Shown in pieces: positions 45,017 to 48,247 of a stretch of DNA of 64,000 bases. The translations under genes and the position numbers were made by a program. This DNA comes from Haladaptatus sp. DJG-WS-42 (GTDB lineage Archaea > Halobacteriota > Halobacteria > Halobacteriales > Halococcaceae). The first letter of the stretch is position 1, and the number at the start of each line of letters is the position of its first letter. The stretch covers positions 992,001-1,056,000 of the forward strand of contig NZ_CP147243.1 in the NCBI RefSeq assembly GCF_037198285.1. The letters are read 5' to 3'. The notes under the pieces were generated by a model, which saw only the letters and a program-made list of their open reading frames with translations, ran no database searches and was not told where the DNA came from.

Positions 45017-45706
45017 ATGAGCCCCGGTGCGCTGGAGGAGGCGGACGTACTGGAGTTTGGGCGGGCCCTGTCCCAGCTAAAACAAGCTGGAAGCATGGTT
45101 CTCGTAACTGGCAGCGTGCCCAAAGCTGCGTTTAGCGCCGTCTCACGCCAGATGCTCGGGGAATCCACGCTCCCGCGACGACGGCTGTTCGTCCTCACAG
45201 ACACCACCGCAGATGCCGTCCGCGAGCGCGTGCCGCGAACCGCAGACCCACGCCAGACGCGCATCATCGAACAGCTCTCGATGACGCGAAGCGTCACCAC
45301 CGCGACGGCGGGAAGCGACCCGACCGTCGAGTATGTCTCCAGCGACGAGTTGCCAGCGCTCATCGAGACCGCGTTCGACGCCATCGGCGCGCTCGAAGTG
45401 GGCGCAGCACCCGCAGAGTTGCGCGTGTGTGTCGATTCGCTCACGCCGCTCATCGAGCGCTATGGCAAGCAGCGAACCTTCACGGCGTTACACGCGCTGT
45501 GTTGGCGCGTTCGCCACGCGCGCGGGCTGGGCCACGCCCACTTACAGACAGATGCGACGGACGTCGTCGCGCTCTTTGCTGAGCTGTTTGACGCTCATGT
45601 CGAGCTTCGGGAACGAGCGGGCACGTTCCAACAGCGATGGCATCTTCGCGACGATGATGTGACAACGGCGTGGTTGACATTCGAGGCGGTGGGTGACATA
45701 CAATGA
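45017..45706 (+). CDS. RecA-like protein of unknown function (DUF7504-like)
   Basis: I start at ATG 45017 (MSPGALEEADVLEFGRALS); sequence upstream is not protein-like. The 229-residue protein has GSMVLVTGSVPKAAFSAVSRQML near 24-46, positioned like the P-loop of RecA/KaiC-type ATPases but without GKT/S. RLFVLTDTTADAV and ELRVCVDSLTPLI fit the later core strands, the second like a degenerate Walker B. From memory it resembles haloarchaeal DUF7504. It is followed by the CHAT-domain gene after 73 bases, suggesting one functional unit. Confidence 0.65.
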   Translation: MSPGALEEADVLEFGRALSQLKQAGSMVLVTGSVPKAAFSAVSRQMLGESTLPRRRLFVLTDTTADAVRERVPRTADPRQTRIIEQLSMTRSVTTATAGSDPTVEYVSSDELPALIETAFDAIGALEVGAAPAELRVCVDSLTPLIERYGKQRTFTALHALCWRVRHARGLGHAHLQTDATDVVALFAELFDAHVELRERAGTFQQRWHLRDDDVTTAWLTFEAVGDIQ

Positions 45707-45779
45707 CCAAACACAGAATTTCTAAACTAGTAGATACATTTTTATCTTCATACAACAGTAAGGTAGCAACGACTGTCAG

Positions 45780-47894
45780 GTGTGGGAGAGCCGGGCAATC
45801 ACCGAGGTGAGCGCACACGTGTACATTACGTATCGAGAATTAGACGGCGGAACCGGGCTAGAGATTACGGATACCATCGAACGGCGGCGGTATTCACTGC
45901 TCTCTGAGACGCCCGTCACACCGACAGGTATCGACACTGACAAATTCGCCTTTCCGATCGACGGCGCAGTTGCGATCGTCACCGAACGGCTGACGCTCCC
46001 AACCGTTGTGCCGGTGTACGTCCGCAACGCAGCGGGCGAGATGATCGCGGAGGCAGAACACTTTGCAGACGCGGACCTCCCGGCAGGCGAGTACAGCCTC
46101 GAGCTGTGCGCGCCGATGAAAATTTATCTGCGCGCCCGCGGGCCGCTCACCCTCGCAGGCGACGCACAGCAGCTTCACGTCGAGTTCGACGAACCGACCG
46201 AAGTGCTCGTCGGTGCGCGCTCACACCACAAGCACCCGGCCGGAACCGTCACGACGACCGAAGACCCGCGCGATTTGATGGCGGCCGTCTCGACGTTTGG
46301 CTCTGCGCTCAAGACGACGTCGCCGGAGCGCTCGTACCCGACGCTCAGAGGCCACCCACCGCTGGTTGAGCTCGGCGATGAACTCGATATTCCCGAGAAT
46401 CTGGTGCGCCCCGACACGGGCATCACCATCGAGGTGCCCCCAGAGACGGGGTACATCTTCTGTGCCGCGCCACTCGTCTACTACCTCGGCGCAGACCTCG
46501 TCCCCGGCTTCGACGCGCGGCTCGTCACCGACGAGGGCTTCACCTTCCCGCTTGGCGACACGCCCAGAGAGTTCGAAAACACGGTCGAAGCCGTGCTCAA
46601 GCACGTGTTCTTCTTAGACTGCATCACGCGCACGGAGGGGTTGTATAAGCTGAATCTCCACGAGCGCCACGAGATTGCAGACCGCGTCGCGCTCGACTTC
46701 GCTTTACTTTACGACCAGTCGCTCGCCGCGCAGCTCGAAGCGTACCTCGCTGTGCCCTTCGAGACCGTCGAACCGCTCTTGCCCGAGTGGAAGCTCACCT
46801 CGCACGTCTCGCTGTCGCCAACGAGCATCGAGACGCTGCCGTTCCTCGTCGATGACCTCGCGGTTGTGCGAACCCCACAGGCAGAACAGGTTGCGCACGC
46901 GGACGCACAGATGGCGCTCGTAGACGAGTTCCTCCGCGACGGCAGCTTCATGCGCAGCGCCTCTGCGGCGTCTGCAGCACCCGCGTCGTACGTAAAGCCA
47001 CAGGCGGTCACGTCGCTCGAACAGGCGTGGGTCGGCGACGGTGCGCCACTCGGCGCGAGCAAGACAACGACGCAAGCGTTCCACAACCATCTCGCGCGCG
47101 AGCTGTCCGACGGCGACATCGACATCACCGTCGTCTGCAACGACCCGCAGATGGACGAAGAGCGCGACATCGTAGACCGCGTCTATGGCTCGCGCTCTGA
47201 CCTGCTGTTCGACGTGACCATCAAACACGACCTCACGACCGCAGAACTCGCGGCCGTGCTCACGAGTCAGACCGAGTTCCTCCACTACATTGGCCACATC
47301 GACGCGGAAGGCTTCGAGTGCGTCGACGGGAAACTCGACGTGTCCACGCTCGATGACGTTGGCATAGACGCCTTCTTCCTCAACGCCTGTTCCTCCTACG
47401 ACCAAGGAATGGCGCTCATCGAGAAGGGTTCGATTGGCGGTATCGTCACGCTCTCTGATGTCATCAACAGCGGGGCGGTTCGCATCGGAAGTACGGTTGC
47501 ACGCCTGCTCAACGGTGGGTTCCCGCTTTCCTCCGCGCTCGAAGTGGCGAAAGGCGAGAGCATCGTTGGCGGCCAGTACGCCGTGATTGGCGACGGCGGG
47601 CTCGCGGTTGCACAGGCAGACAGCGGAACACCGCTGGTCTGGGAGCTAACCGCGCTCGAAGACGACCAGTACGAAGTTGAAATGAAAACCTACCCGACCT
47701 GTGAACGCGGGATGGGGAGCCTCATCGTGCCGTACTTTGAGAGTAACAACGAGTACTTCCTGAACTCTGGGACGCTTGAGCCGTTCACCGTTTCTGCAGG
47801 TGAACTCCTGCGGCTATTCATTATGGAGGATTTCCCGGTGAGAATGGACGGACAACTTCGGTGGTCGAGCGAGATCACGCACAGCGAACTGTAA
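45780..47894 (+). CDS. Large protein with a C-terminal CHAT (caspase-like) protease domain
   Basis: The 704-residue protein starts at GTG 45780, about 35 bases after the TATA-like TTTTTATC. Residues about 420-630 carry CHAT features: FLHYIGHIDAEGF with H502 and H506, then DAFFLNACSSYDQGMALIEKG with C537, and GSIGGIVTLSDV, as in CHAT/separase-like peptidases that use a His-Cys dyad. The first 400 residues are unrecognised, with beta-rich segments; a C-terminal beta-rich region follows the CHAT domain. The gene follows a RecA-like gene and faces a small membrane peptide gene. Confidence 0.75.
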   Translation: MWESRAITEVSAHVYITYRELDGGTGLEITDTIERRRYSLLSETPVTPTGIDTDKFAFPIDGAVAIVTERLTLPTVVPVYVRNAAGEMIAEAEHFADADLPAGEYSLELCAPMKIYLRARGPLTLAGDAQQLHVEFDEPTEVLVGARSHHKHPAGTVTTTEDPRDLMAAVSTFGSALKTTSPERSYPTLRGHPPLVELGDELDIPENLVRPDTGITIEVPPETGYIFCAAPLVYYLGADLVPGFDARLVTDEGFTFPLGDTPREFENTVEAVLKHVFFLDCITRTEGLYKLNLHERHEIADRVALDFALLYDQSLAAQLEAYLAVPFETVEPLLPEWKLTSHVSLSPTSIETLPFLVDDLAVVRTPQAEQVAHADAQMALVDEFLRDGSFMRSASAASAAPASYVKPQAVTSLEQAWVGDGAPLGASKTTTQAFHNHLARELSDGDIDITVVCNDPQMDEERDIVDRVYGSRSDLLFDVTIKHDLTTAELAAVLTSQTEFLHYIGHIDAEGFECVDGKLDVSTLDDVGIDAFFLNACSSYDQGMALIEKGSIGGIVTLSDVINSGAVRIGSTVARLLNGGFPLSSALEVAKGESIVGGQYAVIGDGGLAVAQADSGTPLVWELTALEDDQYEVEMKTYPTCERGMGSLIVPYFESNNEYFLNSGTLEPFTVSAGELLRLFIMEDFPVRMDGQLRWSSEITHSEL

Positions 47895-47903
47895 CTTTGT
47901 TTT

Positions 47904-48038
47904 TACGGGCCGCCAACGGTGCCTGCCACGCCGGCTGCTGCATTCCCGACGGAGCTGAGCAGGAGCATCAGCATGAACAGCGCGCCGGTCATCTGGGGGT
48001 TCTCTGCGAGGTATGCTTTGAGTGAGCTTTCGGACATT
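47904..48038 (-). CDS. 44-residue membrane peptide (DUF7503-like)
   Basis: The minus-strand frame from ATG 48038 to TAA 47904 encodes MSESSLKAYLAENPQMTGAL then a hydrophobic helix FMLMLLLSSVGNAAAG and ends VAGTVGGP. One membrane span near residues 17-36 is predicted. From memory it resembles a haloarchaeal family called DUF7503, which often adjoins the RecA-like DUF7504 genes. It is convergent with the CHAT gene, nine bases apart. Upstream lies a very AT-rich stretch (about 48062-48105) suitable as a strong promoter. Confidence 0.7.
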
Positions 48039-48247
48039 ACAACCTCTCAGATGAGGGGCGAGAATATATAATTATTCTAATATATCTGCTATAAAATTAA
48101 TGTAACAAAACATTTGTGATAAATGGTGTTGCTAGCGCTAGCAGATGACACAAGAAAATAGTTCGGTAACCGAGAACAAAATTCTTTTCCCCGCGTAGAC
48201 ACGACGTGAGCGTAGAAATTCGGCACCTCGCCTGCGCTCACACACTC

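What the first reader, a model, noticed from the sequence alone, without database searches (positions are those of the whole stretch)
45017..48038. RecA-like, CHAT-protease and small membrane peptide gene unit
Seen: a RecA/KaiC-like protein with a degenerate P-loop, a 704-residue protein with a His-Cys CHAT core (H502/H506, C537), and a 44-residue one-helix peptide gene facing it. Known: CHAT proteases act in bacterial defence and cell death when linked to a sensor. Inference: the ATPase-like protein could sense, the CHAT domain cut, and the peptide act at the membrane. No precise description of such a unit is known to me.
Basis: partly seen in the sequence, partly recalled or inferred. Interest (0 to 1): 0.7.

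Follow-up and report, generated by a model that had tools for sequence, protein, structure and literature searches.

The report
Caspase-like protease paired with Gly-Pro peptide
Nearly all salt-loving archaea sampled carry a caspase-like protease gene that faces a gene for a tiny peptide precursor ending in the same two amino acids (glycine-proline), which looks like an undescribed peptide-protease control or signalling system.

Summary
The 704-aa protein is a divergent CHAT (caspase-clan) protease with invariant His502, His506 and Cys537. It is convergent (tail-to-tail) with the 44-aa gene (Pfam DUF7503) in all 54 DUF7503/CHAT loci examined. In 344 Halobacteria genomes, DUF7503 occurs in 296 and CHAT in 320, never DUF7503 without CHAT.

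The peptide looks like a propeptide rather than a membrane effector. It has a conserved signal-peptide-like leader, a signal-peptidase-type site, then a variable tail of fixed 8-9 residues ending in Gly-Pro. In six species of one genus the leader is lost and the tail is repeated 4-13 times, with pN about 0 against pS 0.07-0.57. Divergent CHAT paralogues face unrelated small ORFs that also end in Gly-Pro (11 of 22 against 0.7 expected).

The RecA/KaiC-like neighbour (DUF7504) is optional: near the pair in 25 of 54 loci, but in every genome as a multi-copy family. Best model: the Gly-Pro peptide is the dedicated ligand, regulator or substrate of the protease. Function is untested. No description was found in the literature searched.

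The parts
45017..45706 (+). DUF7504 gene (229 aa), degenerate P-loop, possibly RecA/KaiC-like; optional accessory neighbour
   Evidence: Pfam PF24336 E 2e-43; no Walker A lysine in the aligned members; near the CHAT pair in 25 of 54 loci
45780..47894 (+). CHAT-type cysteine protease gene, 704 aa from GTG 45780 (GTG 45807/45819 possible starts)
   Evidence: 57-member alignment, 71 columns at least 93% conserved; PF12770 hits in orthologues
45813..46229 (+). N-terminal beta-rich domain (residues 12-150), no known fold match
   Evidence: AlphaFold2 pLDDT mostly 70-92 in this part; no PDB match with E <= 0.001
46320..46361 (+). most conserved N-terminal motif, residues 181-194 SPERSYPTLRGHPP (R184, P187, R190, G191, H192, P193, P194 invariant), candidate ligand-binding site
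   Evidence: conservation only; binding is inference
47283..47297 (+). HYIGH motif: His502 and catalytic-type His506
   Evidence: 57/57 and 56/56 conserved (one row reads X at H506)
47388..47390 (+). catalytic-type Cys537 in LNACSS
   Evidence: 56/56 conserved (one gapped row)
47903..48037 (-). DUF7503 propeptide gene (44 aa), convergent with CHAT, 8 nt between stop codons
   Evidence: PF24335 E 1e-17; spacing
47933..48037 (-). conserved leader: short n-region, hydrophobic core, SPase-type site NAAA (residues 1-35)
   Evidence: alignment of 55 rows: position -3 V/A/T, position -1 A/G in every row
47906..47932 (-). predicted mature tail GVAGTVGGP (residues 36-44) with invariant C-terminal Gly-Pro
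   Evidence: tail length 8-9 and GP-COOH in essentially all members

Best explanation
This is a two-component module. One part is a soluble CHAT-type cysteine protease; the other is a dedicated propeptide whose working part is a short C-terminal peptide ending in Gly-Pro. In most species the propeptide has a signal-peptide-like leader that would be removed by signal peptidase I, giving an 8-9-residue peptide (here GVAGTVGGP). That peptide, perhaps after re-entering the cell or taken from unexported precursor, is recognised by the protease, most likely through its N-terminal region (conserved SPERSYPTLRGHPP motif), and switches protease activity on or off. It would thus act as a pheromone-like or autocrine peptide controlling a caspase-like enzyme. 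DUF7504 is an optional accessory. Shown: gene pairing, catalytic residues, leader/tail anatomy, tail amplification under purifying selection. Inferred: release of the tail, binding to CHAT, sign and target of the effect.
For: Pairing: DUF7503 in 296/344 genomes and CHAT in 320, with all 24 CHAT-negative genomes lacking DUF7503. Convergent in 54/54 loci at -38 to +152 nt although neighbours differ: no other neighbour is shared by more than 10 of 50 loci except DUF7504. The tail is the working part: fixed length 8-9, variable sequence, invariant GP end. Within two genera the tail evolves faster than the leader (pN/pS 0.32-0.42 against 0.09-0.17) with GP fixed. In genus g43 six species dropped the leader and carry 4-13 copies of a 13-aa tail unit; pN is 0-0.03 against pS 0.07-0.57, while their CHAT proteins stay 78-83% identical to those of sister species with the normal propeptide, with no fixed change in a catalytic motif. 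Divergent CHAT paralogues face unrelated small ORFs also ending in GP (11 of 22 against 0.7 expected, binomial 1e-11), including a soluble (K)RVS[ST]YGGP series. CHAT-C paralogues in which the His/Cys motifs were not found have no such partner. Named examples: Halorussus, Halomarina.
Against: No binding, cleavage or secretion data. The multi-copy and soluble precursors have no export signal, so an exported pheromone cannot be the whole story unless another route exists. Internal repeat units do not carry a free C-terminal GP unless they are cut. About half of the divergent CHAT paralogues, including the third copy in this genome (L164), have no recognisable GP partner. The structure of the full protease could not be predicted, so a binding site is conjecture. 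The SPase site is a rule-of-thumb reading, not a trained predictor.
Confidence: 0.5

Rival explanations
1. The propeptide is the substrate: CHAT cuts it, either to release the GP peptide (prohormone convertase-like) or to destroy it, and the released peptide is a bacteriocin-like or signalling product.
For: Tight pairing; multi-copy array with conserved junctions GP-[YFMS][TN]ADGN; basic residues before the conserved end of the f4 partners, (K)RVS[ST]YGGP.
Against: Sequences upstream of the peptide differ between variants (AxA-type, R/KR, array junctions), so no common cut site is seen; only the C-terminal GP, which has nothing after it in most precursors, is shared. CHAT is unchanged where the leader was lost.
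Confidence: 0.25
2. Toxin-antitoxin or programmed cell death module: the peptide is a membrane-anchored inhibitor or membrane effector and CHAT is the killer protease.
For: CHAT proteases act in cell death and immunity (general knowledge); the hydrophobic segment of the leader is very conserved; the tail may act as a product-like inhibitor.
Against: Near-universal distribution across the class rather than patchy; no viral contig hit; no PADLOC hit; the hydrophobic segment is dispensable.
Confidence: 0.13
3. One reading: DUF7504 senses, CHAT cuts, the peptide acts at the membrane.
For: DUF7504 lies near the pair in 25 of 54 loci, 21 of them directly upstream on the same strand.
Against: DUF7504 is a multi-copy family found in all 344 genomes, also those without CHAT; 29 of 54 loci lack it nearby; it has no P-loop.
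Confidence: 0.05
4. The pair is linked for a regulatory reason only (overlapping convergent transcripts, antisense control) and the proteins do not interact.
For: Stop codons are adjacent or overlapping in many loci.
Against: Protein-level constraint on the tail: invariant GP, fixed length, synonymous-only repeat divergence; spacing of up to 152 nt and a leaderless multi-copy variant keep the pairing.
Confidence: 0.07

Closest known systems
CHAT domain proteases (PF12770), e.g. TPR-CHAT Csx29 of Craspase (PMC10028731) and cyanobacterial HetF (PMC8406250)
   Same: Clan CD His-Cys core; large soluble protein with an extra domain; orthologues hit PF12770
   Different: No TPR or Cas partner; different, conserved N-terminal beta-rich region; dedicated convergent propeptide ending in Gly-Pro
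RRNPP propeptide-receptor pairs (PapR-PlcR, ComS-ComR) and Rgg-SHP (from memory)
   Same: Short gene next to the receptor gene; hydrophobic leader; mature peptide is the variable C-terminal part of 5-12 residues
   Different: Partner is a protease, not a TPR transcription factor; invariant Gly-Pro end; convergent order; Archaea
PatS/PatX RG(S/T)GR pentapeptide morphogens of heterocyst-forming cyanobacteria (PMC7761841, PMC9410556)
   Same: Small precursors with a conserved short motif, in a network that also contains a CHAT protease (HetF)
   Different: Receptor is HetR, not the protease; no tail-to-tail gene pair was tested; motif differs
Multi-copy propeptides such as yeast alpha-factor (from memory)
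   Same: Tandem near-identical peptide units under purifying selection in genus g43
   Different: No signal sequence, no conserved dibasic junctions; prokaryote
Orphan caspase-like activity of Haloferax volcanii (PMC3615174)
   Same: High LEVDase activity in a haloarchaeon, reported without gene homologues; DUF7503 is found in H. volcanii
   Different: No evidence links that activity to this gene

Membership tests
CHAT protease (PF12770) | profile match over curated cut-off | tested here: inconclusive
   window copy: no hit; own-genome paralogue E 0.18; orthologue in G337 24.7 bits, over the 24-bit cut-off; 3 of 40 members E <= 0.01, best 5.9e-5
CHAT protease (PF12770) | catalytic His (xGH) and Cys (xAC) at the expected positions | tested here: met
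   H506 56/56, C537 56/56
CHAT protease (PF12770) | caspase-like fold | tested here: inconclusive
   full-length model pLDDT 38.5
CHAT protease (PF12770) | cysteine protease activity | not testable with these tools
   needs purified protein
RRNPP peptide-receptor system | TPR-type HTH receptor | tested here: not met
   no TPR or HTH Pfam hit in P0002 or in the 40 homologues
RRNPP peptide-receptor system | short exported C-terminal peptide from an adjacent small ORF | tested here: inconclusive
   anatomy fits in DUF7503; export not tested; some precursors lack a leader
Anti-phage defence system | match to known defence proteins, or island-like or viral distribution | tested here: not met
   no PADLOC hit; near-universal in the class; no viral contig encodes CHAT
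Type III-E Craspase | gRAMP/Cas7-11 neighbour | tested here: not met
   neighbour clustering of 50 loci finds no shared neighbour in more than 10 loci other than DUF7504
RecA/KaiC ATPase (DUF7504) | Walker A GxxxxGK[ST] | tested here: not met
   motif absent in all aligned members
RecA/KaiC ATPase (DUF7504) | sequence similarity to KaiC | tested here: inconclusive
   best PDB match KaiC, E 1.4
SPase I signal peptide (DUF7503 leader) | h-region followed by small residues at -3 and -1 | tested here: met
   -3: V32 A22 T1; -1: A51 G4; mean KD of h-region 2.6; by rule, not a trained predictor

The most novel reading that the evidence does not exclude
A class-wide archaeal peptide-hormone system: a propeptide with a hypervariable, fixed-length, Gly-Pro-ended nonapeptide (amplified to 4-13 copies in one genus) that is sensed directly by a caspase-family protease. 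It would be the first peptide-based cell-cell or autocrine signalling known in Archaea, and a candidate gene for the orphan haloarchaeal caspase activity.
Probability: 0.3. Interest if true: 0.95.

Novelty: categorically new. Interest (0 to 1): 0.82.

Why it matters
Only three cases of true density-dependent signalling in archaea were described before the Haloferax work, none with a known peptide signal (PMC12240190), and a strong caspase-like activity in Haloferax has been reported without gene homologues (PMC3615174). A protease-peptide pair kept in about 86% of sampled Halobacteria genomes, with both Pfam neighbours still 'unknown function', gives a concrete, genetically tractable candidate for both questions. 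If the Gly-Pro peptide controls the protease, it would define a new way of coupling peptide signals directly to proteolysis. The terminal Gly-Pro rule also gives a simple way to find further partners, many of them unannotated today.

Tried and rejected
N-terminal part alone: a beta-rich domain at residues 12-150, no PDB match with E <= 0.001; best 0.013, to an alpha-galactosidase with TM 0.25. (2) PDB sequence searches with P0002 and with the 40-member profile: none. (3) PADLOC and NCBIfam: none. (4) Viral contigs: none. (5) A first genome-contig scan with a two-sequence profile chose poor seeds and found only 3 loci, so the survey was done with the genome search. (6) Shared promoter element upstream of the peptide gene: a weak motif (TATCAGA...TCGAAAAATT, 34% of loci with at least 12/17 matches against 3% in shuffles). 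It was read off the same sequences, so it is only suggestive. (7) Search for a conserved further neighbour: none beyond DUF7504. (8) Literature: nothing on DUF7503, DUF7504 or DUF7090 or CHAT in haloarchaea. Peptide identity of the Haloferax disk-forming signal was considered: that signal is described as a small molecule resistant to proteinase K (PMC12240190), so a link is not supported, though a very short peptide is not strictly excluded. (9) My adjacency probability for DUF7504 used an approximate count (27/52); the count is 25/54 and I do not rely on that p-value.

Full report
CHECK OF THE OBSERVATION. The three genes are present as described. The upstream gene is Pfam DUF7504 (E 2e-43) and the 44-aa gene is Pfam DUF7503 (E 1e-17). 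The 704-aa protein has no Pfam hit of its own, but a 54%-identical paralogue in the same genome matches CHAT weakly (E 0.18, below cut-off). Among homologues 3 of 40 match CHAT (best 5.9e-5), and one orthologue exceeds the curated cut-off (24.7 bits). In 57 homologues sharing 35-56% identity with the window copy, His502 is 57/57, and His506 and Cys537 are 56/56 of rows with a readable residue. It is therefore a divergent CHAT-type cysteine protease by motif and family relationship; fold and activity are not shown.

A TAIL-TO-TAIL PAIR KEPT ACROSS A CLASS. DUF7503 occurs in 296 of 344 Halobacteria genomes (69 of 82 genera) and CHAT homologues in 320 of the same 344. All 24 CHAT-negative genomes also lack DUF7503; a Fisher test gives 6e-24, not corrected for phylogeny. 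I fetched 54 independent loci from about 45 genera. In every one the CHAT gene and the DUF7503 gene converge, with stop codons -38 to +152 nt apart and often overlapping by 4 nt. Apart from DUF7504, no other neighbour is shared by more than 10 of 50 loci, so the pair stays together while its surroundings change. The window genome has a second copy of the pair near the other end of the chromosome record (C1 about 47-50 kb). DUF7504 is different: it lies near the pair in 25 of 54 loci (21 directly upstream on the same strand), but is a multi-copy family present in all 344 genomes, including those without CHAT. It lacks a Walker A motif throughout.

THE PEPTIDE IS A PROPEPTIDE. In 55 aligned DUF7503 rows a conserved leader (YLAxHPRMIGVLFTxLLLLSQAG) is followed by [TSN][VA]x[A], with V/A/T at position -3 and A/G at -1 in all rows. 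After that comes a tail of 8 or 9 residues with variable sequence that ends in Gly-Pro as the last two residues of the protein (one 10-residue tail, L074). That is the anatomy of a signal peptide plus a short secreted peptide. In two genera with dense sampling the leader is under strong purifying selection (pN/pS 0.09-0.17) and the tail changes faster (0.32-0.42) while Gly-Pro is fixed. The window copy predicts GVAGTVGGP. It carries Q at the otherwise basic position before the hydrophobic core, so cleavage at that residue cannot be a general mechanism.

THE DECISIVE VARIANTS. Eight genomes have a canonical CHAT but no DUF7503 hit. In six, all of genus g43, the gene at the same convergent position still begins MS-[EK]... 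but has lost the hydrophobic leader and instead carries 4-13 tandem copies of a 13-aa unit [YFMS][TN]ADGNxxGISGP. This unit is homologous to the single tail of sister species (TVAAGNSGAISGP). Between units of one gene, synonymous differences are frequent (pS 0.07-0.57) and non-synonymous ones nearly absent (pN 0-0.03), so the array is translated and selected as peptide. The CHAT proteins of repeat and non-repeat species remain 78-83% identical, with no fixed difference in a catalytic motif. The other two genomes (g75) have remote leader peptides, again ending in Gly-Pro (L116, L117). Divergent CHAT paralogues outside the DUF7503 association were then tested: 11 of 22 face a small ORF ending in Gly-Pro, against 0.7 expected from a background of 196/21,870 ORFs. 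Among them is a soluble series ending (K)RVS[ST]YGGP in one family. CHAT-C paralogues, in which the His/Cys motifs were not found, had no such partner. The common denominator is the Gly-Pro end, not the membrane segment.

HOW IT MOST LIKELY WORKS. Shown by sequence: near-obligate pairing, invariant catalytic residues, leader/tail anatomy, and selection on a Gly-Pro-ended tail that can be amplified and freed from its leader. Inferred: the tail is recognised by the protease (probability about 0.8), most likely as ligand or regulator (0.5) rather than only as substrate (0.25). A binding site near the invariant SPERSYPTLRGHPP region is a guess from conservation. In canonical species the peptide would be exported and act on neighbours or return; in the leaderless variants it must act inside the cell or leave by another route. 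The sign of regulation and the target proteins are unknown.

COMPARISON WITH KNOWN SYSTEMS. CHAT proteases are known in Craspase (PMC10028731) and as HetF (PMC8406250). RG(S/T)GR peptides of the PatS/PatX type act in the same cyanobacterial network as HetF but bind HetR (PMC7761841, PMC9410556). RRNPP systems share the propeptide logic but have TPR transcription factors as receptors, which are absent here. No defence-system model matched, and no viral contig encodes the protease. Outside Halobacteria the protease family was found only in four genomes of one family of the same phylum, and no Gly-Pro partner was seen in three of these four; in the fourth (L163) a 170-aa overlapping ORF happens to end GP. 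In named plasmid records most CHAT copies are called 'hypothetical protein', one each 'CHAT domain-containing' and 'caspase family', and the propeptide is annotated in Halomarina sp. BND7 but not in three Halorussus plasmids.

LIMITS. The signal-peptide reading is by rule. Fifty-one of the 54 loci were chosen through DUF7503; the unconditioned evidence is the genome-wide co-occurrence and the CHAT-selected loci within.

Noticed in passing
L124, L127, L138, L139, L143, L144 (genomes G124, G174; genus g53): One genus carries about 10-12 CHAT matches per genome, several with their own convergent Gly-Pro-ended small ORF; a natural expansion of the system.
   Followed up: partly
L176-L179 (CHAT-C): A paralogue group keeps the N-terminal region (profile positions 2-345) but the His/Cys motifs were not found and no Gly-Pro partner was seen; possible decoy or separate use of the N-terminal domain.
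   Followed up: partly
L164:3767-5860 (+), own genome C1:264916-266847: Third CHAT homologue of this genome has intact His and Cys but no recognisable Gly-Pro partner; a separate same-strand gene follows it.
   Followed up: partly
L063, L064, L067: A second CHAT copy lies on the other side of the DUF7503 gene or in tandem, apparently sharing one propeptide.
   Followed up: no
L201:1591-2976 (Halostagnicola larsenii plasmid): The DUF7504 domain sits in a longer protein annotated with a HalOD1 output domain, suggesting a signalling role for DUF7504; no Gly-Pro peptide was found within 900 nt of that CHAT.
   Followed up: partly
window 48040-48100 and the same position in other loci: AT-rich element upstream of the peptide gene; a TATCAGA...TCGAAAAATT-like motif about 54 nt before the start codon recurs in about a third of loci.
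   Followed up: partly
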